From assembly GCA_910890315.1 (NCBI GenBank), contig CAJVGD010000013.1, positions 682,001 through 746,000 of the forward strand: DNA of 64,000 bases, given 5' to 3'. The stretch is from Serendipita indica DSM 11827. Lineage: Eukaryota > Basidiomycota > Agaricomycetes > Sebacinales > Serendipitaceae. The translations under genes were made by a program, and so were the position numbers. Below are positions 1 through 28,576 of the stretch, in pieces (position 1 is the first letter of the stretch; each line of letters opens with the position of its first letter). The notes beneath the pieces are model-generated. The model was given only the letters and a program-made list of their open reading frames with translations. It was not told the origin of the DNA and did not search any database.

Positions 1-3000
1 TTTGCGGAAGATGCCAACCAAAGAGCACGCATAAGGCTCTGTTCGAGTAGGTGGTACTATAAATCTTGTAAAACAACTGATGCGTCGTAGCCCCGAGGGC
101 TGTGAGGCTCTGAATCACCTGGATGTCTCCCTCAAAGCCGCACAGCTCTTGCTAGAGCAGAATGAGGTGATAGAAACCACACTCTCCGCGTCTGAATCCA
201 CTAGAGTTGGGCCGGTCAAACGGCCCCCTATTGGGGAGCTGGTAACATCGCTCTTTCGCACCACGTTGACCCCAAACGATGGTACCATCGACAAGCTCAT
301 GAGCACAACCAAGGATGTAGACATATGCCGCGGCAACTGCAACCGCTCGTTCAAGCGGGTATGGAACCTCTATCAACTCTATCAGCAGCCTCCGAACCGA
401 CAAGCGTCTATAACCAGCATTCGATCCGACGGCATCGAAGGTGCCTTGGATGATGTCGAATTGGCGTTCTATAAACGACCTTTTTCTGTATCCGCGGAGG
501 GCAGTGTCCGTGTCGCGTTCAACAGCCTGTCCATGTTGAACCGAACCAGCGAAAACTCAACGAAACACATGAAGCTGATGAAAGACATTGGTCACCGGTG
601 GGCACAGAGTGGGATGGATCGAAATGATTTCCTAGGCCAACCTGGAAAACCCATTTCCAAGATCCAAGCCCTTGGAAGGCTACAAACGTCTCTGTTCGAG
701 CTAATTTGGAGTGGTACGATCGAGCAGATGAAAAGGCCTCAAAACATCGAAATTCTGGCTCAGGAGAAGTCGGAATTCAAAACCGAGCTGTACGAGCTTG
801 AAAAGGCACTCCAAGATGCAATTTTGCGAGCCAAAAAAGAGAGATTCGCCATCGCTTTCTGTGGAATGGTCAAAGCTGGGAAGTCATTGTTCCTCAACGC
901 GCTCATTGGCGAACCTATTCTGCCATCTGATGGTGAGCATTTATATCTTCACCGCTTAATCTATCTAATGTGGTACCATAGAATTACCATCCACCGCCTG
1001 GCCGTGTCGGCTTCGCCATGTTCCAGGCCAGACGACGCCGATGCTTACTTACGACGAGGGGCCGTTTATCTCCGGCCTAAAGGCGCTGCAGAAAGCGAAA
1101 TATGGTCATCGACTTAGGAACTACCAACCTCCTTCCGAAGATACTTTCGATGCAATATTCCAGGATGAAGATGTAGCGCCACCGACAGAAGAGGAGGTCA
1201 AGCTCAGGGAACTGTACGCATCTTGGGTTGACCTTCATGCTGTGACAAGGAAGAACCTAGAAGAATTCGAGTCTCCATACTATGTCTTACCCAAGTCAGC
1301 AAAGGGACACGAGGACGTTAAGAGATTGGTGAGTGAGACGTTATTCTTTCCAGGCGTCACTTATTAGCTCTAGCTAGGGATTCTAAACGACATCATTCGA
1401 CTCTGCTTCCGCTTCAAGCTCGTTTTCAAGATGGATGATGTCGAGTGGCCATTACTGACCGTGGAATTCAACTCGCTTCGTGACCACCCAATGGACGGCA
1501 TATACGAGGTGAGGCTTTAGCTGTATGGCACGATCCCTAAGCGACTCAAATTATACCAGTTTATAGACCTCCCGGTACGAATGTTCCGCATAAATCTTCT
1601 TTTATCTTATTATCTATAGGGGGTTGGAGAGCAATTTGAAACAGTATGTCAATGATGAAATTATGAATGCGTATTCACGTCGTATATCCACAGTTCAGCT
1701 TCGAGGCCATGGTTCGACTGGTAGCAAAGGACTCAAACGCAATTGTACCCATCATCTCATTCAAAGAATTGGCCCGCAGGCAAGTACTCGAAGGCTCCGT
1801 TTCCATCAGTACTCATCATTACTCAGTGATTGGAAGAAGCTACCGGACACTGTATCGAGTGGATTTGGTGCTCGAGCAAACATTGTCATCTGCACTCATC
1901 TGTAAGTTTTGCTCGCGCGTCGTCCGTAGCTAATTGAGCCCAGGGACCAAATTCACGGCGAGAACCTCAACGAACAATTATCAATCGTTAGCAAGGTCTT
2001 TTGGCCCGGTAATGTTAAGGGAGCAGCGTCCAACAACATCATTCCTTGCTCTTCGTTAATGGGTCTGAGCGCGCGAGCCCTTTTGGACTTATCAAAGGGG
2101 AAATCAAAACCAAACTTTACGTCTTTCTGGGACCCGAAGCGCAAGAAAGTCAGCCACCCGGTACGAAGCCTCCTCCCCGACTGCTGGACGTTCTCTCACC
2201 ACCTTCTAGTGCGCTGAAAAAATCCTTGGCGTCAGCCGGCCTAAGGAGAACTATGAGAGGATGCCGACCGAATTTTGGAAAGCCGAGCTCGAACGGGAGA
2301 TGAAAGAGAGCGGCTTGCCAGACGCAATCCAAAAGCTGGCCCGAGAAATGGTCGATCAAGCCAAACAACGGGCTCTCATTCAGGAATGCCAGGCTGTGTG
2401 TAAACAGCTTCGCAAGATGATTACCGCCCAAGAGTATGTCTCCATCGATAATAGGTCTGCTCTATTCATCATGTCTACAGACGCAAGCTCCTCGAAGCCA
2501 GACGCACGGTTTGTCTCTGCTCCATCTGTCTCACTTGACCTGACAGGTATAGAAACGAGACTTTGATGCCGCAAAAAAGGAATTTGAAGATGCCCGAGCG
2601 AAGTTCTATGCACTGATCAATACATGGAGTCTTAGCAAAACCACCCAGGAGCAGATTTATAAAGACAAGCTGGACAGAGGGATCAAGGCACTCTCCCAGA
2701 AAGCCGAATCCTTCATACCCCTCGCCATAAAGAAGACGCTCAACGATTGGTCCCTCGGATCCGTCAAACAAGAGACGGATATTGAGTCCAGTAGAGCCCC
2801 GGAAAAAGCAAGAGCCACAGAGCAACATGGAACTACTGTACTCACTGTCAAAAGTGTGGCACATGCAGAGGAATTCCTCCGTCACAGTCAAGCTGAACTC
2901 ACAAAGTCGTTGAACGAGCTCAGACGGGACTTTGTGATCAGTGTTCGGAAGATGGCAGAGGAGGCGCGAGCAAAGCGCTTTCAAGATCTGAAAGACAAAA

Positions 3001-3895
3001 TCAAAGATCTCGATCCAAAGATGCAGCCAGAGCTCCGTGAAGAAATCATCGAGGATCTGAGCAATCAATCTGTCAATATTCGTCAAGTTGCTTTCAACCA
3101 GATCAAAAACAAGGTATAAATATACACATAATGCGTTTAACTGGTTCTCATTTTCTTCAGATCAAGACAACCAAGACGCGACATAGCGCAAGCACCGCTT
3201 TCAGAGCGATAGAGGAACAGCTAGCAAAACCTTTGCTCACGCAGAAACAGGAGGGGCAATCGGGAGATGCAGCCGAGCAGCAAGCCCGACAGGTTAGTCC
3301 GTGTTCTATTCAACCTGAATTGATCCTGACGGGATGCATTGAATCAGGCTGTAGAGGATCTTGGATTTGTGAGTTTGGGACTACTCGAGGAGTGTTTACT
3401 CAACCCTCCAAAGATACTTCGGGCCCCTATCACCGCCGTCGCAACAATCCCTTTCGTATTTGGGCTGCCCATCTGGCCTTGGATTATACACTCTCAATCT
3501 TTTCACCTTGCGATGGATGTTATCGAAGGTCGCTATCGGGAGGAAATCGTCAAACCGTGGATCAAGGATCTGGCGAGAGAGAGTGAAAAGTCGCTGACCG
3601 GAACAATCACAGCTAGTTCCCAGGTCGGGAAGACAGCGGTAGAGAACGCATTGGCACGTGAAGATGCACGATACAAGCGGGAAAGTGAAGAGCGAAACCA
3701 GAACAAGTATGGAATGGTACCGAACATGGTGCGTAAGTATGATGTTGGGATGACTGGCTCTGATCTTCATAGGTGGCACTCAACAGCTCTCTATGGGCGG
3801 CAGAGAGTGCGCTTCAAACGATCTGGAAAGAGCTCCGTGAATCACTGAACAGTGTGGGCGAGACAGCCCTCAATGCCAATGATGGGCTGCATTAA
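1..3895 (+). CDS. Dynamin-like large GTPase, copy A (5' end outside window)
   Basis: Multi-exon gene whose first exons lie left of the window. Spliced reading gives a dynamin-type G domain. G1 is GMVKAGKS (Lys codon 881-883). A G2-like LPSTAWP follows an intron (about 932-980). G3 is FIDLPG, split by an intron near 1575, and G4 is VICTHLD, split near 1900. Charged helical, probably coiled-coil, sequence follows (about 2570-3110). A hydrophobic segment (APITAVATIPFVFGLPIWPW) lies near 3420-3480, then another helical stretch ending at TAA 3893-3895. Dynamin-family GTPases hydrolyse GTP to remodel or tether membranes; the hydrophobic segment suggests membrane contact here (inference). An almost identical copy lies at 23.1-26.9 kb. 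The first visible intron appears to use GTGGTA as donor near 51, because the GTAAGT of the other copy is altered. The exact subfamily is not recognised. Confidence 0.75.
1..3895 (+). repeat. Segmental duplication, copy A
   Basis: Positions 1-3895 match 23321-26880 in the same orientation. Identity is patchy. The first 480 nt are visibly diverged, about 490-1950 is almost identical including introns, 1960-2250 is diverged again, and 2255-2570 is almost identical. Copy A contains about 300 extra nt (within 3161-3510) that copy B lacks. The left border lies outside the window. Confidence 0.85.
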
Positions 3896-3941
3896 ACATA
3901 TATCAACAATTATGGAGACGATTATGAACCACTGTGGTCAC

Positions 3942-4812
3942 TTAGAACAATGGAGTGATTGAACGCTTGCGAATCACGCGCCCGACGCCGATCCCAGGAG
4001 AATATGTACTATCGAATTTGCTCTGCGCACCGACCCGAGTTCGACGATTCTCAGGGGTCTTGAGTTCATGCGTCGACTGAGTGAACTGTGCTCGAGAGTC
4101 GCCCAGAGGCTCCAGAAATCCGCCATAGTTGGGACGAAACGCACTAGAGGGATCTGGAGACGCTGGGCAAGACAGCAGGTCTCTTTCACCATCACTTGCA
4201 TTTGCATTCTCTTCCTTCAACTCCGTCCTGTAGCCCTGCAAGCTCACGGCTGGCAATAAAAAGGGCCTTGGCTTGCGAGTGATTGGCCGTGTCAACTGCT
4301 CCCTTTGTGCTTCGCGGATGCCATTTGTGAACTGCCGAGTGTGTTCCTCCTGTTCTCTAGGTGAGGCAAAATCCAACCTGCGCCGTTGGGCATTTGTTCC
4401 TTCGTCGGCAAATATGTGCGGTGGTAGTGATATATCATACGCTAGAATAGTATATCGCAATCTTCCTTGGAGAGCTTGTTTTTCTTCTTTGGTCTTGCGC
4501 GATATGAACGAGGCGCTGGTGCAGACTTGGGAGTGGGCGGTCTTCGAGGCTCGAGATGAGCCCCATAGAAGTTTATCATGACATTTGGGTCATGGTATAC
4601 CCTGATTTGGTCTTTGCGTGCTACAGCCGGGATCCCCTCAAAGGGGTTCTTGTGCGGCGTCGAATCCGCCGAGCGGCACCTTTTAACTGTTCAAGGTATT
4701 AGCAAACACTAAAGTATTAGCTCAGATCCGTACCCGAATCCAGCTCGAGCAAAGTGCGCGGCGAGAGATTGGGGCTGAGAGATGCAACAACTTGCTTGAA
4801 AGACGAAGTCAT
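3942..4812 (-). CDS. Unknown, largely disordered protein (two exons)
   Basis: Not recognised. The only reading that joins cleanly starts at ATG 4812 (MTSSFKQVVASLSPNLSPRT), uses a 47-nt GT-AG intron at 4687-4733 and continues in one frame to TAA at 3942. The product is about 270 residues, rich in Pro, Arg, Ser and Glu, with no membrane segment and no catalytic motif I can identify. A more ordered stretch (DQIRVYHDPNVMINFYGAHL) follows the splice junction, and a possible helix with many Lys and Glu lies before residue 100. It is convergent with the GTPase gene, 46 nt away. The coding call rests on the long open frame after splicing and on the coherent composition; function is unknown. Confidence 0.5.
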
Positions 4813-5303
4813 GGGTGACGCGCAACGTTGTTCGTAGGCTTTGGTGATCCTTTTTCTCGACTTTGTGCTCTCCTTTTATACTCGCGATGGCGCCGAGTTT
4901 CTGTAGGTGGCGAGCCAGACATTGAGCCACTCCGGCGCCCTTTGTGTCGGCGCACAAGGGGCCACTGTCAGGGAGGCCTACGGCGAGTATAGCAAGAAAG
5001 ATACAACCTATCAGTATCCTGTCGACTGCTCGTTCAAAATGTAACTAATCAGAGAAACAACCTTTCAAGCCGCGCTTCCACAAGGTTTTAGATAAACGGT
5101 CGCAGTGTCCTGTCGTTTGGTGCTCAATCAAGATGAGAATGTAATTCCTATTTAGCATTAGTATGCCTCGTAGAACCAAATTGGTAGTTGTTTCTTCAGG
5201 CTGAACGACCCAGATGGAATACGAGGTATACTTCCCACTGACTGCGCAACATCACCTACAGGACGAAAGGGTCTATAGGTGTAATCGGTATTCTCCATGA
5301 ATA
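4813..5303. other. Intergenic, 491 nt, no gene seen
   Basis: This stretch lies upstream of the 3942-4812 gene and downstream of COG7. A minus-strand open frame here encodes a hydrophobic stretch (RILIGCIFLAILAVGL), but it has no usable ATG and overlaps the true first exon of the neighbour in another frame. Confidence 0.4.
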
Positions 5304-8300
5304 CTATGTACTCCATCCACGCAATCTGGCTACTAATCTGAAAATAGCATCCGCATCGACGATAGACTGAGCTTGTGCGTTGCTGACGCCCTGAGCAAAC
5401 GCCGATGCACCCTGGACGGTCAGCCACCGTCTCTTTCCTTCATCGTTACTCAGCTCGCAACATTCTCGCCACCGGTCTAGGTCCTCCCAATAGGCATTGA
5501 GCATACTCGCCACGTTGGCTAGATCGCCCAAATCGTATGCCAGTTGCGCGGCTCCGAGTGTCGTCAGCATGCGAATTGATGGGAGCACAGAGGTCGTCAG
5601 GTGTGAGAGGAGGGAGAATGTGATTGAACTCAACCACGCCGACTGAATCGTCTCGGATGCGAGCTGTGGAGGGCGAGTTGACGTAGAAGCTGGTGGGAGT
5701 TGGAGCGCAGCCGTAGCGCTGGAAAAGGAAAGTCGCCTAGCGGATGGTGAAGATAAGGACAGTCTGTTCATCCGCGGCGAGCCCGTCGCGTTTCGGTCTG
5801 GATGTGGGATGTTGATAATCTGGGCTGCGACCCACTCCCGGTACTCCTTGAGCGCTTCATTGCGCTCGGAAAAGGGCAGCATGTCGATCTCAAATGCCAA
5901 TGCGTCGTCATCACCCGCATAGTCGACGAGCATTCTCGGTAATGCCATGAGGCCGTCTCTAACTTTGCGCATCGTGGGTGTGGCACTAAGCGAGAAAGTT
6001 GGTACGTTGAAACCGTATGAATTGGCTTGGGCTGCGGCCTGCTGTTGCTCGGTGAGTGACCAAGAAGGTTGCGAGGCATAGGTAGAGAGTGCGGTGAAGA
6101 ATGGCCTGAGGATGAGCTGTTGAAGGAACGCTTGGGTGGCTTTGGTAAAGTCGCTCAGAGCGTTGAAAGACCCCCGAAGGACAGGTGAAATGCGAATCGG
6201 CGCCGTTGGTTCCGAACGCATACTTGACGACAACTGCCCTCCTATGGATGCTGTCATAGGTGTTGGAGGAACACTGCCTGATGTTCCAGAGGAGGCGGAC
6301 GTGAAGACAGGTACGGTCGGCGGCGGATCTATAGTGTCTAAAAGCGTATTCAACTCCATAGAGTTCATCGCGGACTGCGCGAGTAGCTCTGCCTCTCCCT
6401 TTGCGGCATTCGGTAAGGAATGGCCATTAGGGAACGACTGAGACATCCGTAGAGCATGCGAAACTGAGACGAGCTCGCTTTTGGTGCGCGAGTCCAAGTG
6501 TTTAAGCTGCTCCTTGAGGGCTCGTTGCGTATTGAGTAGGTTCAGAGCAAGTTGGAAAGCAGCGAGTTCGGATGTCGTAAGCAGTTCCTCATCGAACCGG
6601 TCGATGGAGCTTGAATCCGAGTTGGCAGTTAAATCCGCTGGGGATCGCAGAAAATCTGCTTTAGCGGTGGCAAAGAACTGCTCGAAAAGGTGGTCGATGG
6701 CCTCGAGACCCCCAACGGCGCCATAGCCGTGCGTGAAGCTGAGACATCTCGCAAACGACTCCTCGGCAAGACCGAAGACGTCGACCGCTTTTTCTCTCAG
6801 TACACGTGCTTTGACTTCTGCGTCGTCCACGTTGACGAGTTGCTTTCTGTACGAGGAATCGAGCTTGGAGAGCGCGTCATCAAGCAGCCGCTTTTCTAGC
6901 GTGGCGTGTTCCGTCTGGAGGTCGATAAATGGTTCAAAAAGTGCGTGCTGCCACGTAGTGTCGATGGCCTCTGGGCTCAGTCCCAGGCTGAGCATTTGCT
7001 TTTGATTGCTTGGAATCCGTCGCGACATAGATAGTCGTTTGGACTTGTTTCGCGAGTGACCTTTTGCGTCCTCCTTTGGGGGCGAGGTAGGCCCTAGCCC
7101 TCCGGACCTTGCGATGGCTGCTTTCTCCATCACTTTTTCAACTTTGATGGCAAACTCTTCGACGAGTTTGAACGATTTGAGAAGCTCAACCAAGGCTGAG
7201 GTGCCGTACCACGCCACCATTCCAGACAGCCGTTGGGAGAATGATGGTGTAAGGGCTTCGACGGTTGATTGAATAAAGAGGGAGAGTATAGTGACGGGAT
7301 CAGAAGTGGTGGAGAAGATGGTAGGAATGGAGGATCTTTCCTCGTTGATGAGTGTGAGCAATTCGGCGAGGAAACGGGCCAGGAGTTCGGAGAACATGAG
7401 AGCGTGAGGTGACATATCCCCAAGTCCTCCATCTCCTTGGACATCCGACAAGGAGGCCTTGCTCCACATCTCGACAATGGCCAACCTTCGTGCTCCAAAG
7501 TAGTAGTTTTTGAACTCGCCTTCACGCTCAATCTTGTGGAAGATGTCGTGAAAGTTTTTGCAGGCGGCAATATCCTGCATGTTGATTGCCGCTACTAATG
7601 CCGCGCTCAACGCTGCTTCGGTTTGGTTTTGTAGGTTGATCATCAGAGTCCTTCGTGCCTCATACTCTGGTGTGTGTGCGAAGACGGACATTGATTTTGC
7701 TGCTTCAGAGAGACGAGATGCAGCTTTTGCATAGGAGGCCTCTTTGAGTAGACTGGTAATCTCTGATTCGAGCGTGCTCCAGTTTTCAGCTTCTTGTAGG
7801 ACTGCTCGAGCAGCCTCCATGCCTCGCTTGACGGCGTCTAGATACTGGATCTGTTCCAGTGCCTTTGTTGTACCCTCCTCTTCGGTCGAATGAGAGGCGG
7901 ATGTGCCCATCGTCGTGCGATGAATCGAACCGAGTTCACGCTGGAGTGCAAGGGCGCTCTCGCGCATGATTTGGAGATCAAAGTTGAGTCTTGGGACATT
8001 TCTTGAAATGTCCTCGATGGTTTGCTCGAGTTGGCTAGATGTTTCCTGACAGGTGACTTCGAGCCTTGTCGCGAGTTGCGTGACACGGCTGTCGAGCTCG
8101 GTGAGATCGACTGGACGTTTGAGCGTGCCATCTTGTTCGAACGATCCATCCAAAGTGTCTCCCTCGATGAGTTCATTGATCCAGTCGGCCAACTCGCCGG
8201 GATATGCGTCGAGCGAGGAAGCGATATCGGCGCTCGTCAGAGCACCTAATGACAGAGAAGACGCATGATGTTCCTAGATACCCAATGTCAAAGGAATGCA

Positions 8301-8799: not shown

Positions 8800-11788
8800 A
8801 TGAGCCCTCAGCATTTGCACTGGGATATCGAGGAAAAGCGCCAACGACGGGCACTCACTGTGCATGGAACTGCCCTCCTTGCTCTCTCCTTCCAAACCCT
8901 CGGTTGGTCATTTCGCTTCTCCGCTCAAGCGTGAGGAACTGACCCCTCAGGGCAGGGATCATCTACTCTGACATTGGCACGTCACCGCTTTACGTGCTGA
9001 ATGGTATCTTCCCTTCAAGCCAGCCCGCTCCCAATGAGCAGGACATCGTCGGCGCCATCTCTGCCATCGTTTGGTCCTTGACGCTCCTCCCATTGCTCAA
9101 GTATGTCGTCTTGGGTCTACGATTCGGTACCCAAGAGGGCGAGGGTGGCACTTTTGCCTTGTTTCATGGCATCTTCCCTCCAAAGGCGATTGATTGGGAC
9201 GAGGACCGCACTTTGACAGCTGAATTTGGACTCAAGACTCCTTCGACGTCCACCTCATCTTCGATCCGGAATGCACTTGATCGATTCAAATGGGTTCTCC
9301 TTGCTTGGGTTCGTCTCTGGCCGACGATACCATGACCTGCGCGACTCATTTTTCGCGTAGAGTCTCTTTGGAACTGCGTTGACCTTTGCGGACGGTATGC
9401 TAACCCCAGCCGTCTCGGTCACTTCGGCAGTTTCTGGTATCGCATTGGTCGCTCCAAAGCTCAATGACAATATTGGTCCGATTTCCATCGCCATTATCGT
9501 CGCTCTCTTCCTCATCCAGAGGTTTGGAACCGCCAAAGTTTCTGCTGTCTTCTCTCCAGGTACGAGACTCCTCTAGCCGCACAAGGGATGAAGAATTGAT
9601 GAGACATAGTTACTGCGGTCTGGCTCACTCTTCTGTTCACGACTGGCATCTACAATGTCACGTCATACCCGGCAATATTCCGCGCTTTTGATCCCTCGCG
9701 AGCCGTCCTTTGTAAGAGCTCATCCACTTTTGCTCCAAACTCTGACGATGCCAAAGGGTTCGTGAGAACGAAGGAATATGACAACCTTTCCGGAGTTTTG
9801 CTCGCCGTGACCGGTTGTGAAGCCATGTTCGCAAAGTACGTTGCTCTCGACCAAGTTTGCAGGGCCTGATTTTATAATTCCAGCCTCGGGCAGTTCAACA
9901 GACAGTCCATTCAGGTTCGTGAGGTTCTATGAGAGTGTTAACTGAGCTTACAATACCACAGATTTCCTTTGCTTTCGTTACGTATCCAGCTCTCATCCTT
10001 GCCTACCTCGGCCAAGGCGCGCGCCTTGTCAAAGATGGAGAAGACGTGATCCAGAACGTCTTCTACGCGTCGATTCCAGGAGGTGCCGGCAAGCCGCTTT
10101 ATTGGTGAGTTTGATTCGTGGTGACTTGCCAGATCCCTGACACGCCTCTAGGATCATGTACGTCTTTGCTATCCTTGCGACTGTAAGTGGCATTCATCAC
10201 TCATGGCTACTGTCTCATTGCCATTGTAGCTCGTCGCCTCGCAAGCCACCATCACCGCGACGTTTTCCCTTTTTCAACAAGTCATCAACTTGCGAAGTTT
10301 GCCACCGTATGTTCTTTTCCAGCAAAATTTTGACTACATGCTCATCTACCATAGGGTTCGCATGCGATATACGTCAGAGACGGTTCAGGGTCAGATTTAC
10401 ATCCCATCTGTCAACTGGGTCCTCTGCGTCGGCACGGTCATCTTTGTCCTCATCTTCAAGGATCTAGCCAAGTTGACGTATGCATACGGGTAAGTCCTCC
10501 TAAAATTACGCGGCGTCTTGCCTAACTGAGTTCAGATTCGCTGTCGCCACCGTCATGCTTGTGACGACAACGTTAATCACCATCCAAATCCCAGTCGTCA
10601 AGAAACTCCCGTGGATCGTCGGAGTGGCATGGTTGCTCTTCTTTGGCTTCTTTGACGGCCTCTTCTGGGGTGCTGCGCTTCGCAAAGTTCCTCATGGCGC
10701 ATGGGTTCCTCTGCTCATCGGATGTATCCTGTCCGTTTTTTTCCCATACCATATCGACAAGGGCGCTGACTCTAAGTAGCACGGCATTCATGGTCTTCTG
10801 GACCTGGGCAAAGGGACTCGAAGACAAGTTTGACGGCGCCAACCGACGGAGTCTGCGCCACTTTATCTCCAAAGAGATTACCGAAAAGATCAACTACTCC
10901 CCCGTTGTCCGCAGACTCGTGCTCGGCAGTGTCACACCCCAAGCAGAGGACACGATTGTCGAAACGCCAAACGAAGATGCAGGCATTTCGACGGCAGTGA
11001 ACACGCAATTACAAGCCAATCTCGACTCGGAACCGCATTTCCTCGAGGAGACGAAGCTCTACTTGTCCGTCGGCGATCGCAAGACGTTGTTGCCGCGCAT
11101 GTCGACCATGGCCATCTTCCACAAGCTCTCTTCTGGCAAGGGTGTCCCGCATACGTTCTCCGGGTTCCTAGAACAATGGCCTGCACTCCCTCGCGTCGTC
11201 ATCTTCCTCTCTGTCCGGATCATGCCCATCGCGCACGTTCCAACGGAGAACCAGTACCGTGTGACCAAAGTCCGCAGCTTACCTGGTACAGTTCTTTCTT
11301 TCTCATATGAAAGCAACTTGCTGACTCATGTCAGGATTCTACGGCGCGACGTACATGCTCGGATTCCGAGACAAGTTTAGCGTCGACACGCATGCGCTCC
11401 TCGAACTCATCCTCTCACTCGAACTCCGCGCGACCGACTCGAAGAAGCATGCAGACGAGATTGTCGAAGAGATTAAAGAGGCAGCTAAAACGGTGACACA
11501 CGTGTACGTCTTTCCTCTCCATCTTTCTATCGTATAACTAAGTCTTTCCTTAGTGTACCGCATTACCACGTCATGGCGCGTAAGATTATCATCTGGGGTG
11601 CACCCGTCGTCAACTGGATACGAAAATGGCTGATCGAAGACATTTACCGGAGTGTCGGTACGTTCCCTTTTTGTCTCTAGCAAAAACATCGACTGACGAA
11701 TATCGCAGCGTACGTCTTCCCTGAGACGGCCACGTGGAAAATGAAGGCCGACGATATCATTCACGTCGGCGTCACTGCGGAGATCTAG
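8800..11788 (+). CDS. HAK1: High-affinity K+ transporter, HAK/KUP/KT family
   Basis: Plasma-membrane K+ uptake system of the KUP/HAK/KT family, about 790 residues after removal of roughly ten introns. ATG 8800 gives MSPQHLHWDIEEKRQRRALT, and an intron follows. The next exon opens with the family signature GIIYSDIGTSPLYVLNG. Other hallmarks follow in order: EGEGGTFALFHGIFP, ADGMLTPAVSVTSAVSG, GCEAMFANLGQFNRQSIQIS (split by an intron), and FGFFDGLFWGAALRKVPHG. About 12 hydrophobic segments precede a soluble C-terminal domain that ends with HVGVTAEI, a typical fungal HAK ending. The spliced frame appears intact. HAK transporters are usually induced by K+ starvation; I see no specific site for that here. 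Confidence 0.93.
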
Positions 11789-23082: not shown

Positions 23083-26000
23083 ATGGCAGATCCAATCAGG
23101 ATAACGATTACAGCGGTTACAGCGGTAAGATTCTGTCTCCTCGTTCGTCAAGGAAACTCAGTGTCTCTAGGTGCTCGGCGCCGCCAAAGCCATCGTCGCC
23201 ATGATCGACAAAGAGGAGCGCCAGAAACATCAGAAGAATGCATCAGTTACCGATCTTGAAGCATCTGTCAACGCCCTCAAGGAGGACATGAGCATCTATG
23301 GCCGTTTCCTGAACACGATGTTTGCGGAAGATGCCAATCAAAGAGCACGCGTAAGGCTCTGTTCCGGGTAAGTGATGCTATAAATCTTGTAAAACAACTG
23401 ACGCGTCGTAGCCCCGAGGGCTGTGAGGCTCTGAATCAACTAGATGTCTCCCTCGAGGGCGCGCGGCGCTGCTTGGAACAGACAGAGGTGGTGGAGACCG
23501 CACTCTCTGCCTCTGAATCCAATAGAGTGTGGCCGGCCAAACGGCCTCCTATCGGAGAGCTGGTAAAGTCGCTCTTTCAAACCAACTTTGCTCCAAACGA
23601 CGATACCATCGACAAGCTCTTGAGTGCAACCAAGGATGTGGATATATATCGTGGCAATTGCAAGTGCTCGTTCAAGCGGGTATGGTATCTATATCAACTC
23701 TATCAGCAGCCTCCGAATCAACAAGTATCTATGGAAAGCATTCAATCCGATGGCATTGAGAGTGCCTTGAATGACGTCGAAATGGCTTTCTACCAGCGGC
23801 CATTTACTGTATCCGCGGAGGGCAGTGTCCGTGTCGCGTTCAACAACCTGTCCATGCTGAACCGAACCAGCGAAAACTCAACAAAACACATGAAGCTGAT
23901 GAAAGACATTGGTCACCGGTGGGCACAGAGTGGGATGGATCGAAATGATTTCCTAGGCCAACCTGGAAAACCCATTTCCAAGATCCAAGCCCTTGGAAGG
24001 CTACAAACGTCTCTGTTCGAGCTACTTTGGAGTGGTACGATCGAGCAGATGAAAAGGCCTCAAAACATCGAAATTCTGGCTCAGGAGAAGTCGGAATTCA
24101 AAACCGAGCTGTACGAGCTTGAAAAGGCACTCCAAGATGCAATTTTTCGAGCCAAAAAAGAGAGATTCGCCATCGCTTTCTGTGGAATGGTCAAAGCTGG
24201 GACGTCATTGTTCCTCAACGCGCTCATTGGCGAACCTATTCTGCCATCTAATGGTGAGCATTTATATCTTTACCGCTTAATCTATCTAATGTGGTACCAT
24301 AGAATTACCATCCACCGCCTGGCCGTGTCGGCTTCGCCATGTTCCAGGCCAGACGACGCCGATGCTTACTTACGACGAGGGGCCGTTTATCTCCGGCCTA
24401 AAGGCGCTGCAGAAAGCGAAATATGGTCACCGACTCAGGAACTACCAACCTCCTTCCGAAGATATTTTCGATGCAATATTCCAGGATGAAGACGTAGCGA
24501 CACCGACAGAAGAAGAGATCAAGCTCAGGGAACTGTACGCACCTTGGGTTGACCTTCATGCTGTGACAAGGAAGAACCTAGAAGAATTCGAGTCTCCATA
24601 CTATGTCTTACCCAAGTCAGCAAAGGGACACGAGGACGTTAAGAGATTGGTGAGTGAGACGTTATTCTTTCCAGGCGTCACTTATTAGCTCTAGCTAGGG
24701 ATTCTAAACGACATCATTCGACTCTGCTTCCGCTTCAAGCTCGTTTTCAAGATGGATGATGTCGAGTGGCCATTACTGACCGTGGAATTCAACTCGCTTG
24801 GTGACCACCCAATGGACGGCATATACGAGGTGAGGCTTTAGCTGTACGGCACAATCCCTAAGCGACTCAAATTATACCAGTTTATAGACCTCCCGGTACG
24901 AATGTTCCGCATAAATCTTCTTTTATCTTATTATCTATAGGGGTTGGGAGAGCAATTTGAAACAGTATGTCAATGATGAAATTATGAATGCGTATTCACG
25001 TCGTATATCCACAGTTCAGCTTCGAGGCCATGGTTCGACTGGTAGCAAAGGACTCAAACGCAATTGTACCCATCATCTCATTCAAAGAATTGGCCCGCAG
25101 GCAAGTACTCGAAGGCTCCGTTTCCATCAGTACTCATCATTACTCAGTGATTGGAAGAAGCTACCGGACACTGTATCGAGTGGATTTGGTGCTCGAGCAA
25201 ACATTGTCATCTGCACTCATCTGTAAGTGTTGCCCGCGCGTCGTCCGTAGCTGATTGAGCCCAGGGATCAAATTCACGGCGAGAACCTCAATGAACAATT
25301 ATCAATCGTTAGCAAGGTCTTTTGGCCCGGTAATCTCAAGGGAGTGGCGTCTAACGACATCATTCCCTGCTCGTCGTTGATGGGTCTGAGCGCGCGAGCC
25401 CTTTTGGACTTGTCAAGAGGGAAATCAAAGCCACAATTTACGTCATTCTGGGATCCGAAGCGGAAGAAAGTCAGCCACCCGGTACAAAGCCTCATCCCCG
25501 ACTGCCGGATGTTCTCTCACCACCTTCTAGTGTGCTGAAAAAATCCTCGGCGTCAGCCAGCCTGAGCAGAACTATGAGAGGATGCCGACCGAATTTTGGA
25601 ATGCCGAGCTCGAACGGGAGATGAAAGAGAGCGGCTTGCCAGACGCAATCCAAAAGCTGGCCCGAGAAATGGTCGATCAAGCCAAACAACGGGCTCTCAT
25701 TCAGGAATGCCAGGCTGTGTGTAAACAGCTTCGCAAGATGATTACCGCCCAAGAGTATGTCTCCATCGATAATAGGTCTGCTCTATTCATCATGTCTACA
25801 GACGCAAGCTCCTCGAAGCCAGACGCACGGTTTGTCTCTGCTCCATCTGTCTCACTTGACCTGACAGGTATAGAAACGAGACTTTGATGCCGCAAAAAAG
25901 GAATTCGAAGATGCCCGAGCGAATTTATATGCACTGATCAATACATGGAATCTTAGCAAAACCACCCAGGAGCAGATCTATAAAGACAAGCTGGACAGAG

Positions 26001-26933
26001 TAATCAAGGCGCTCTCACAGAAAGCCGAATCCTTCATACCCCTCGCCATAGAAAACACGCTCAACGATTGGTCCCTCGGATCCGTCAAACAAGAGAAAGA
26101 TATCGAGTCGAGTAGAGCCCCGGAAACAACAAAAGCAACAATGCAACATAGTACTACTGTACTGATCCTCGAAAGTGCGGCGCACGCAGAAGAATTCCTT
26201 TGCCTCAGTCAAACCGAGCTCACAAAGTCGTTGAACGAGCTCAGACGGGACTTTGTGATCAGTGTTCGGAAGATGGCAGAGGAGGCGCGAGCAAAGCATT
26301 TTCAAGATCTGAAAGACAAAATCAAATATCTCGATCCAAAGATGCAGCCAGAGTTCCGTAAAGAAATCATCGAGGATCTGAACGATCAATCTGTCAATAT
26401 TCGTCAAGTTGCATTCAAACAGATCAGAAATAAGGTATGTATACACGTGTCTCGCCATTGACTGAGCCTTATCCTTTCCATTAGATCAAGATAATCAAGA
26501 CTTGGGGACGAAACAAGCAAACGATCTATCTCGCCATGGATGTCATTGAAGGCCACTACCGGGAGGAAATCGTCAAGCCGTGGATCAAGGATCTGGCGAG
26601 AGAGAGCGAAAAGTCGCTGATTGGAACAATCACAGCTAGTTCCCAGGTCGCGAGGACGGCGGTAGAGAACGCATTGGCACGTGAAGATGCACGATACAAG
26701 CGGGAAAGTGAAGAGCGAATCCCGAACAAGTACGGAGTGGTACAGAACATGGTGCGTAAGCACGTTGTTGGGGTGACTGGTTCTCACCTTCATAGGTGGC
26801 ACTCAACAGCTCGCTATGGGCGGCAGAGAGTGCTCTTCAAACGATTTGGAAAGAACTCCTTGAATCACTGAACGTCATGGGCAAGGCACCTCTCAATACC
26901 ACTGAATCTATTGTGGAGGAAACCCTTGTGAGA
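23083..26933 (+). CDS. Dynamin-like GTPase, copy B, with altered P-loop (possible N-terminal part of a GTPase-kinase fusion)
   Basis: ATG 23083 opens MADPIRITITAVTA; an intron follows, then VLGAAKAIVAMID, a mildly hydrophobic N-terminus. Exons match copy A. The G1 loop reads GMVKAGTS: codon 24202-24204 is ACG (Thr) where copy A has AAG (Lys). G2-like LPSTAWP, FIDLPG (G3) and VICTHLD (G4) remain. Loss of the invariant P-loop Lys normally abolishes nucleotide binding or hydrolysis in P-loop GTPases (established for the fold), so this may be a pseudo-GTPase. The hydrophobic segment of copy A is absent (26485-26537 replaces about 350 nt). Where copy A stops, this copy stays open (LNTTESIVEETLVR to 26933). 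A 38-nt GT-AG intron (26934-26971) would join it in frame to the kinase downstream. Confidence 0.72.
23321..26880 (+). repeat. Segmental duplication, copy B
   Basis: Same-orientation partner of 1-3895, offset about 23.32 kb. Similarity ends just after the shared codons for ESLN near 26873, close to where the two proteins begin to differ. Upstream of 23321 comparison is impossible because copy A runs out of the window. Confidence 0.85.
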
Positions 26934-26977
26934 GTATGTAAAACTTGTCGCTGCAAACTTATGATGTGCAGGACACG

Positions 26978-28576
26978 ATGCATACAGGCACAGAGAGTGT
27001 ATTGATCCAGGGAGAATCGAGAGAGGGGGAGCGAACAGTGATGCCGTTTCCACAAGCAGAACAAATGGAAGGTAGATCCTCTGAAGCAAGCATTTTGCGA
27101 GGCAAGAACTCAGAGGTTTTGGGAAGTGGCTCTGAATCACCAGGTTCTGCGCTCGAGGGTATCAAAACGTCCGTGCAACAGTATACCCACGCTGCAACTC
27201 AAACATTGGCCGAAGGATCTGACAAGGAATCCGATTCTTCTTCATCTGATCCATCGTCAACTTATGGGCGCGTTAATGGTGTCGACGTACCGCTCAAATA
27301 TGCTCACGCTGCAATCCAAACCCAAGTCGAGGCAGTTCTCGAAGAATCATATCCCTTTCATCCAGGGCATTTAGCAACCGTCAAAGAGGACCCTGACCCG
27401 CTGATTCCGATGTTGCAGGATTTATTGCATCAGCGGCGTCCAGTTGAGCTGTACAACGTAACCAACATCAGCAATCATCCCTTTGCCTACGGCGGATATG
27501 CCCAAATTTACGCTGGCGAATTTCAGGGACGCCAAGTATGTGTGCTCGACGACTTGATCGCGCGGTGTAATATTTCGATAGGTGGCTGTGAAGTGCATCA
27601 CCCCTCGGAGAAACCGGACTAGGCCCGCGCCATGGGAACAATCGATGAGTAGGGTAAGTGGGATTGAGTTTGCCTGACTTGTGATGAATCCTGCATTTAG
27701 AGAGTTGATAGAGAAATCGAAGTATGGAGCGCGCTTTCTCATCCTAATATTCTCGATTGCCTCGGGTACTATTGTAACACCAAACTCGCCGACTTCCCTT
27801 GTATTGTTTCTCCAGTACGTGTTCATATTTCGACTAATCGAAACTTACGAGCTGTAGCTGTGCGTTCATGGATCGTTGGATATCTATCTACGGGAGTCTC
27901 CCAACATTACAGACGCCGAGCGCCTGCGATTGGTTCGCCAACAGCTCACTCTTGCTATAGGTTTGACGTATTGTATTCAGGTTTCCCAAACATCTCTGGG
28001 AATAGCGTATTTGCATGATCTCGGCATCATTCACGGTGATCTAAAACCAGTGAGTATGCTCGACCAACAATCCACTTTCTCAATTCTTTTTCAGCTGAAT
28101 ATACTCGTCGACGAACACTATCAAGTCCGCCTCTGTGATTTTGGCCTGGTTCGTGCCCTGGAGGGGCTCGAGCCGACCCCGACCCCATACATCGCAACGC
28201 CTCTCTACATGGCCCCAGAATTGAGTGATTATCGAGTGTCAACGTTTGCAGGGGATATCTGGGCGTTTGGTTGCATCGCATTAGAGGTATATCTCCAAAC
28301 TTGGCGTTGTCATGAATAACTGGACGTGTCTAGGTTATAGAAGGCCTTCAACCTTATGCACGACGGCAGAACGAGATGAGGACCTATGGTCGGGCATACA
28401 GAAATCAATACCCAGCTGACAAGAGCATGAGCCGTTGGCCTCAATCTGACTTTAAAGAGGCGGCCTGGGCACTCATGAAAAGCTGCTGGAATCAATTTCC
28501 CTTTCTCCGACCTCCGATTAAGAGCATGGTTTGCCAACTGCAAATGATGGAGGAAATGTTGCCCCTCGAGGAGTAG
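26978..28576 (+). CDS. TKL-like protein kinase (separate gene, or C-terminal half of the GTPase fusion)
   Basis: An N-terminal Ser/Glu-rich linker (27000-27420) holds two imperfect repeats, YTHAATQTLAE and YAHAAIQTQVE. The kinase domain follows: a Gly-rich loop FAYGGYAQIYAGEF, VAVK with the beta-3 Lys (27591-27593), the alpha-C Glu in REIEVWSALSHPNIL, catalytic-loop HGDLKP then LNILV across an intron, DFG in LCDFGLV, and APE in YMAPE. The C-lobe is complete, with W.FGC and RP near the end; stop TAG 28574-28576. Catalytic Lys, Asp and Asn are present; HRD is replaced by HGD, as in many agaricomycete TKL-type kinases. If separate, translation could start at ATG 26978. If fused, the protein would be a GTPase-linker-kinase of roughly 1,400 residues. 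Convergent with the hydrolase gene 132 nt away. Confidence 0.75.

What the first reader, a model, noticed from the sequence alone, without database searches (positions are those of the whole stretch)
23083..28576. Possible fusion of a dynamin-like GTPase and a TKL-like kinase
Copy A of the GTPase ends at a stop codon, while copy B stays open past that point (ESIVEETLVR). It can be joined in phase 0 by a 38-nt GTATGT...GCAG intron (26934-26971) to a linker and a complete kinase domain on the same strand. Without splicing, the GTPase frame ends at 27003-27005. A G domain plus coiled coil plus kinase in one polypeptide would be an unusual architecture, reminiscent of multidomain fungal innate-recognition proteins. 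That role is speculation.
Basis: partly seen in the sequence, partly recalled or inferred. Interest (0 to 1): 0.78.

Follow-up and report, generated by a model that had tools for sequence, protein, structure and literature searches.

The report
Dynamin-kinase fusion gene in fungus
In the genome of a root-dwelling fungus, a duplicated membrane-shaping (dynamin-like) gene appears to have lost its GTP-gripping lysine and its membrane-contacting tip and to have been joined to a protein kinase, which would turn a membrane machine into a signalling protein.

Summary
Window 23083-28576 reads as one 22-exon, 1508-codon gene: a dynamin-like protein (DLP) followed by a kinase with intact motifs. The proposed 38-nt intron (26934-26971) has a GTATGT donor, a CTTAT branch-like site 10 nt from the end and CAG, and keeps frame. 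A frame-blind intron scan returns it with nine other modelled introns and no candidate lying wholly in an exon. The codon signal favours the kinase frame from the junction through the linker, leaving little room for a separate kinase promoter. Copy A, 23 kb upstream, ends as a DLP. None of 27 DLP-profile hits carries a kinase family. Best reading: a real fusion gene in which a DLP, unlikely to bind GTP or insert in membrane, serves as assembly or sensor module for a kinase. No transcript evidence exists here; function is inferred and an immune role untested.

The parts
23083..28576 (+). copy B: predicted 22-exon fusion gene, 1508 aa, stop at 28574-28576
   Evidence: gene model with 21 introns of 38-51 nt, open throughout
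24172..25175 (+). dynamin-type G domain (residues 334-572; introns included in the span)
   Evidence: Pfam Dynamin_N E 5.9e-9; FIDLPG and CTHLD motifs kept
24202..24204 (+). codon 344, Thr (ACG) where copy A and 24 of 26 relatives have the P-loop Lys
   Evidence: single difference A to C at 24203 between copies; alignment and motif search
26485..26530 (+). junction where B lacks 67 residues (A residues 939-1005) that include a hydrophobic stretch
   Evidence: alignment; hydropathy of A segment; tip position in the model of a relative
26536..26882 (+). GED-like return helix (residues 949-1049; one intron included in the span)
   Evidence: maps to helix 1012-1112 of the P0001 model
26934..26971 (+). 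proposed 38-nt fusion intron GTATGT...CTTAT...GTGCAG, phase 0
26972..27409 (+). coding linker of about 146 codons, containing YTHAATQT and YAHAAIQT
   Evidence: codon score best of six frames, z 2.9 over 26972-27403; open in 9 of 2000 shuffles; no second copy in the genome at E 0.001
27491..28534 (+). protein kinase domain (residues 1240-1495; introns included in the span) with VAVK, HGDLKPLN, CDFG, MAPE, DIWAFG
   Evidence: Pfam Pkinase E 4.4e-42; motif positions
1..3895 (+). copy A, the DLP paralogue without kinase; its first 239 bases lie before the window (model of 1128 aa)
   Evidence: gene model, 93% DNA identity to B; AGKS P-loop and paddle-position segment present

Best explanation
Copy B is a chimeric gene. 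A BDLP/mitofusin-like gene (ancestral to copies A and B) was duplicated so that its coding part, without the stop codon, came to lie upstream of a kinase gene, with a short intron joining the frames. The product would be one chain: N-terminal helical domain, dynamin-type G domain, helical trunk, GED-like helix, linker, kinase. Since the G domain lacks the P-loop lysine and the trunk lacks the segment at the paddle position, it should not bind and hydrolyse GTP normally or insert in membrane. I propose that the DLP part now works as an assembly or sensor module: it joins assemblies of its intact paralogue A through trunk, GED and G-domain surfaces and brings kinase domains together when A assembles, so that they activate one another. 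Shown by sequence: the open fused frame, intact kinase motifs, the two losses in B and their absence in A. Inferred: splicing in vivo (about 0.72), loss of normal GTP binding (about 0.65), co-assembly with A and kinase clustering (about 0.3). The confidence given is for a fused protein with a degenerate DLP part.
For: Open 1508-codon model. Junction intron has donor, branch-like site and acceptor like its neighbours, is one of 10 modelled introns that a frame-blind scan returns, with 12 candidates on the + strand of the gene, all on modelled introns or sharing an end with one, 2 candidates on the minus strand of the gene and 0 on the minus strand of window 1-3895. All five GTATGT on the + strand of the gene are modelled donors. 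12 of 2000 shuffles give a joinable intron. Linker codon score z 2.9; kinase frame positive in windows starting 26942-27302. No stop of the kinase frame after 26939. A/B homology ends about 10 nt before A's stop codon. P-loop lysine in A and in 24 of 26 relatives. B lacks A residues 939-1005. 23 B-only against 3 A-only changes at 496 conserved columns. dN/dS 0.32 overall.
Against: No RNA or protein evidence. 38 nt is shorter than the other 20 introns of the model. No fused relative was found in the rows listed, and no S. indica protein for this locus was listed, so no annotation backs the model. Codon scores are slightly negative in the kinase exon itself (windows 27347-27482), so the measure is noisy. 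Pairwise dN/dS cannot say whether B is still constrained since its losses. Co-assembly with A and clustering rest on analogy alone.
Confidence: 0.6

Rival explanations
1. Two genes: the GTPase of copy B ends at 27003-27005 and a separate kinase gene starts downstream, for example at ATG 27410, with its promoter in the stretch called the linker.
For: ATG 27410 (MLQDLL...) lies where standalone S. indica kinase P0124 starts, about 30 residues before the glycine loop. Relatives of the GTPase and of the kinase occur as separate proteins. The junction intron is unusually short.
Against: The stretch 26972-27403 is open and scores as coding in the kinase frame, which would leave no non-coding room after 27005. 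The canonical intron with frame-restoring ends is rare by chance (12 of 2000).
Confidence: 0.17
2. One gene with two products: use of 26971 gives the GTPase-kinase fusion, while retention of the intron, or an acceptor 16 nt further (26934-26987, 54 nt), gives a GTPase-only protein that stops at 27003-27005.
For: Read from the sequence: both alternatives keep the GTPase frame and reach the same TGA. The 54-nt form is nearer to the usual intron length than 38 nt.
Against: The 54-nt form was not returned by the scan; its CTTAT lies 26 nt from the end. No transcript evidence for any isoform. This rival is compatible with the fusion.
Confidence: 0.15
3. Copy B is a decaying duplicate. The fusion is incidental, and the lost lysine and missing segment mark its decline.
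For: 23 B-only against 3 A-only changes at conserved columns. Loss of two functional elements. A tract at 23806-25230 is 95-100% identical to A, which looks like gene conversion and could keep the G domain open without selection on B.
Against: No stop or frameshift in 1508 codons, although dS is 0.48 in codons 81-240 and 0.23 in codons 641-1060, with dN/dS 0.24 and 0.32 there (0.5 in codons 1-80). Kinase motifs are intact.
Confidence: 0.2

Closest known systems
Bacterial dynamin-like proteins (BDLP, SynDLP) and mitofusins
   Different: Copy B lacks the P-loop lysine and the paddle-position segment and carries a C-terminal kinase. It also has a long N-terminal helical part of about 330 residues.
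Agaricomycete Dynamin_N proteins (P0001-P0004, P0241-P0262)
   Same: Direct homologues over the whole DLP part; 53% identity to Serendipita sp. 401.
   Different: None of the 26 is annotated with a kinase family; 24 of 26 have the P-loop lysine.
Roco proteins such as LRRK2 (Roc-COR-kinase; recalled, not from a call)
   Same: A G domain and a kinase in one chain, the closest working analogy.
   Different: Roc is Ras-like and is followed by COR; neither was reported for copy B at E 0.001. The G domain here is of dynamin type.
Fungal NLR-like receptors with kinase signalling domains
   Same: A nucleotide-binding module plus kinase in one chain; S. indica is reported with 274 NLR-like proteins (PMC4986451, passages).
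   Different: No NACHT or NB-ARC here. In NLRs the kinases are named among N-terminal domains (PMC10197012, passages); here the kinase is C-terminal.

Membership tests
Dynamin superfamily | dynamin-type G domain with DLPG motif | tested here: met
   Dynamin_N 36.6 bits against cut-off 27; FIDLPG in B
Dynamin superfamily | P-loop GxxxxGK[ST] lysine | tested here: not met
   B reads GMVKAGTS; A and 24 of 26 relatives have GKS
Dynamin superfamily | BDLP/mitofusin-like fold with trunk and return helix | tested here: met
Dynamin superfamily | membrane-contacting element (paddle or transmembrane) between trunk and GED | tested here: not met
   A residues 939-1005 have no partner in B; that this segment is a paddle is inferred from position and hydropathy
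Dynamin superfamily | GTP hydrolysis and polymer formation | not testable with these tools
   needs protein
Eukaryotic protein kinase | catalytic motifs VAVK, HxDLKxxN, DFG, APE | tested here: met
   VAVK 1255, HGDLKPLN 1359, CDFG 1378, MAPE 1403; Pkinase 144.7 bits
TKL group of kinases | closest to TKL kinases rather than other groups | tested here: inconclusive
   PF00069 144.7 against PF07714 124.4 bits; best PDB rows mix EGFR, IRAK4 and PLK4; no tree was made
Roco (LRRK2-type) | Roc and COR domains | tested here: not met
   not among the 4 Pfam families at E 0.001
Fungal NLR-like receptors | NACHT or NB-ARC domain | tested here: not met
   not among the 4 Pfam families at E 0.001 in B, nor at E 5 in seven relatives
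FslK fungal kinases | membership of the FslK clade | not tested
   known from passages of PMC3937382 only

The most novel reading that the evidence does not exclude
A dynamin-like membrane machine has been converted into a signalling receptor: a pseudo-GTPase without its paddle that monitors or poisons assemblies of its intact neighbour A and reports through a fused kinase, comparable in logic to an integrated decoy.
Probability: 0.25. Interest if true: 0.82.

Novelty: new variant of a known kind. Interest (0 to 1): 0.62.

Why it matters
If expressed, this would be a dynamin-type G domain and a kinase in one chain, an architecture seen in none of the proteins listed. The intact paralogue lies 23 kb away, so there is a natural comparison: one copy with lysine and tip, one copy without both and with a kinase. 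That would make directly testable how an assembly-driven GTPase can be rewired into a signalling switch, in a fungus grown in laboratories.

Tried and rejected
The first structure prediction (4-row alignment) had mean pLDDT 46 and was discarded; the 21-row repeat (pLDDT 75) was used. Both are of relative P0001; copy B was not folded. I looked for a kinase beside other GTPases of this genome at C13:489-498.9 kb and C20:155.5-163.5 kb: no match to B's kinase at E 0.001. I looked for a second copy of the linker: none at E 0.001. I looked for a known N-terminal signalling domain in seven relatives down to E 5: none named. A frameshift or assembly error at the junction is not needed, since a canonical intron joins the frames, but is not excluded. 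K344T rests on one base (24203); sequencing error or allelic variation (the strain is described as a heterokaryon, 2.6 SNP per kb; PMC3192844, passages) is not excluded. Paper searches for a described dynamin-kinase fusion in fungi (listings only) showed none; at most 1, 4, 1, 10 and 1 papers were listed, and the library lacks most subscription papers. PMC12258605 (passages) names Dynamin_N only for an orthogroup excluded from its NLR set.
Full report
Identity of the genome. The window is contig C13, bases 682001-746000, of a 24.7-Mb assembly in 55 contigs. Protein P0123, named Serendipita indica DSM 11827, is listed with a contig of 1,979,259 bases. Contig C5 of this genome has exactly that length and matches P0123 exon by exon (best rows 84-100% identity, read without regard to introns). 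The published genome size is 24.97-24.98 Mb (PMC3192844, passages). I take the organism to be S. indica DSM 11827, a root endophyte.

The gene. From ATG 23083 I built by hand a 22-exon model to the stop ending at 28576, 1508 aa, with 21 introns of 38-51 nt. One intron is of GC-AG type (25101-25147), and copy A has the same one. Pfam at E 0.001 gives Pkinase (residues 1240-1495, E 4.4e-42), PK_Tyr_Ser-Thr, Dynamin_N (334-572, E 5.9e-9) and a sub-threshold ABC1 match.

The junction. The 38-nt intron has donor GTATGT, a branch-like CTTAT whose A lies 10 nt before the end, and CAG. Introns 24650-24694 and 24896-24940 have CTTAT at the same spacing. A scan that knows nothing of reading frames (GTRNGY donor, YTNAY 9-16 nt from YAG, 36-60 nt) returns 12 candidates on the + strand of the gene. 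Ten are modelled introns, this one included; the other two share a donor or an acceptor with one. It recovers 10 of 21 introns, so it is strict. It returns 2 hits on the minus strand of the gene and 0 on the minus strand of window 1-3895. In 12 of 2000 shuffles of 26906-27040 such an intron joined the two frames. The linker 26972-27403 scores 0.068 per codon in the claimed frame and below zero in the other five, z 2.9 against 300 shuffles; 9 of 2000 shuffles stay open. In 150-nt windows the kinase frame is positive in those starting from 26942 to 27302; before that all three frames are negative, the GTPase frame being best at 26852. From 27347 on the kinase frame is slightly negative, though still the best of the three forward frames, so the measure is noisy. 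The nearest upstream stop in the kinase frame is at 26939, inside the intron, and in-frame ATGs lie at 26978, 27041, 27065 and 27410.

Origin. Copies A and B share 93% of their DNA over about 3.2 kb. The match starts 25 nt before the ATG and ends at 26905, which in A is about 10 nt before the stop codon. The copied unit is thus the gene body with almost no upstream sequence and without the stop codon. The genome-wide kinase searches list nothing between C13:678.3 and 709.4 kb, so no kinase was found next to copy A on its 3' side; a kinase of another type lies 3.5 kb upstream of A, at C13:677.6-678.3 kb. Between 23806 and 25230 the copies are 95-100% alike, against 79-86% just upstream and 89-93% just downstream, with a further near-identical stretch at about 25606-25830; the first 300 nt are 84-96% alike. 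This looks like gene conversion. dS is 0.06 in codons 241-640, 0.48 in 81-240 and 0.23 in 641-1060; dN/dS is 0.28, 0.24 and 0.32 there, 0.5 in codons 1-80 and 0.32 overall.

What B has lost. Of the 26 relatives P0001-P0004 and P0241-P0262, 24 carry GxxK[AS]GKS, as copy A does. P0249 lacks the region and P0262 reads GMVKAGYV; the two weak hits P0263 and P0264 were left out of this count. Copy B reads GMVKAGTS by one base difference at 24203. B also lacks 67 residues (A 939-1005) that include LRAPITAVATIPFVFGLPIWPW. That segment is visible in P0001-P0004 and P0241-P0250 but not in P0251-P0262, some of which are short models. At 496 columns where three Serendipita relatives agree, A alone differs at 3, B alone at 23 and both at 58; a sign test on 23 against 3 gives 9e-5, taking columns as independent.

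Is the architecture known? The fused query found 383 proteins; of the 120 listed, 0 carry both PF00350 and a kinase family. The profile of four DLPs, with a candidate range of 612-1948 aa by the tool's length rule, found 27, of which 0 carry a kinase family. The kinase alone was searched in a length range that excludes such fusions (842 found, 120 listed) and is no test. No S. indica protein for this locus appears in the rows listed.

The kinase. Its nearest relatives in the genome are partial matches, such as 56% over 85 residues on C5 and 43% over 93 on C40. The genome has 131 PF07714 matches, counted exon by exon. Three kinase genes stand in tandem at about C13:661.5-668.5 kb, some 13-20 kb before copy A. 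An expanded kinase lineage is reported in Agaricomycetes (FslK; PMC3937382, passages); whether this kinase belongs to it was not tested.

Mechanism. My best guess is a pseudo-GTPase scaffold: the DLP part joins assemblies of copy A and clusters the kinase. Rivals are two genes, two isoforms and a decaying copy; their odds overlap, since the isoform reading is compatible with the fusion and decay can follow a fusion.

Noticed in passing
window 5304-8270 (-) and 10577-11377 (+): Neighbouring genes: a COG7 Golgi-complex subunit (Pfam E 1.8e-43) and a K+ transporter C-terminal domain (E 1.8e-9); both ordinary.
   Followed up: no
window 25101-25147 and 1780-1826: A GC-AG intron (GCAAGT donor) conserved in both copies of the GTPase.
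   Followed up: partly
window 23806-25230 against copy A: Tract of 95-100% identity, introns included, between flanks of 79-93%: a likely gene-conversion tract covering the G domain, inside which the P-loop lysine differs.
   Followed up: partly
L051 (C13:661501-671500), positions 1-7000: Three related kinase genes in tandem on the same strand, 13-20 kb upstream of copy A.
   Followed up: partly
L014 (C13:489000-498900) and L015 (C20:155500-163500): Further dynamin-like GTPase genes with ordinary GKS P-loops, among them two about 4 kb apart on C13; not related closely to copies A and B.
   Followed up: no
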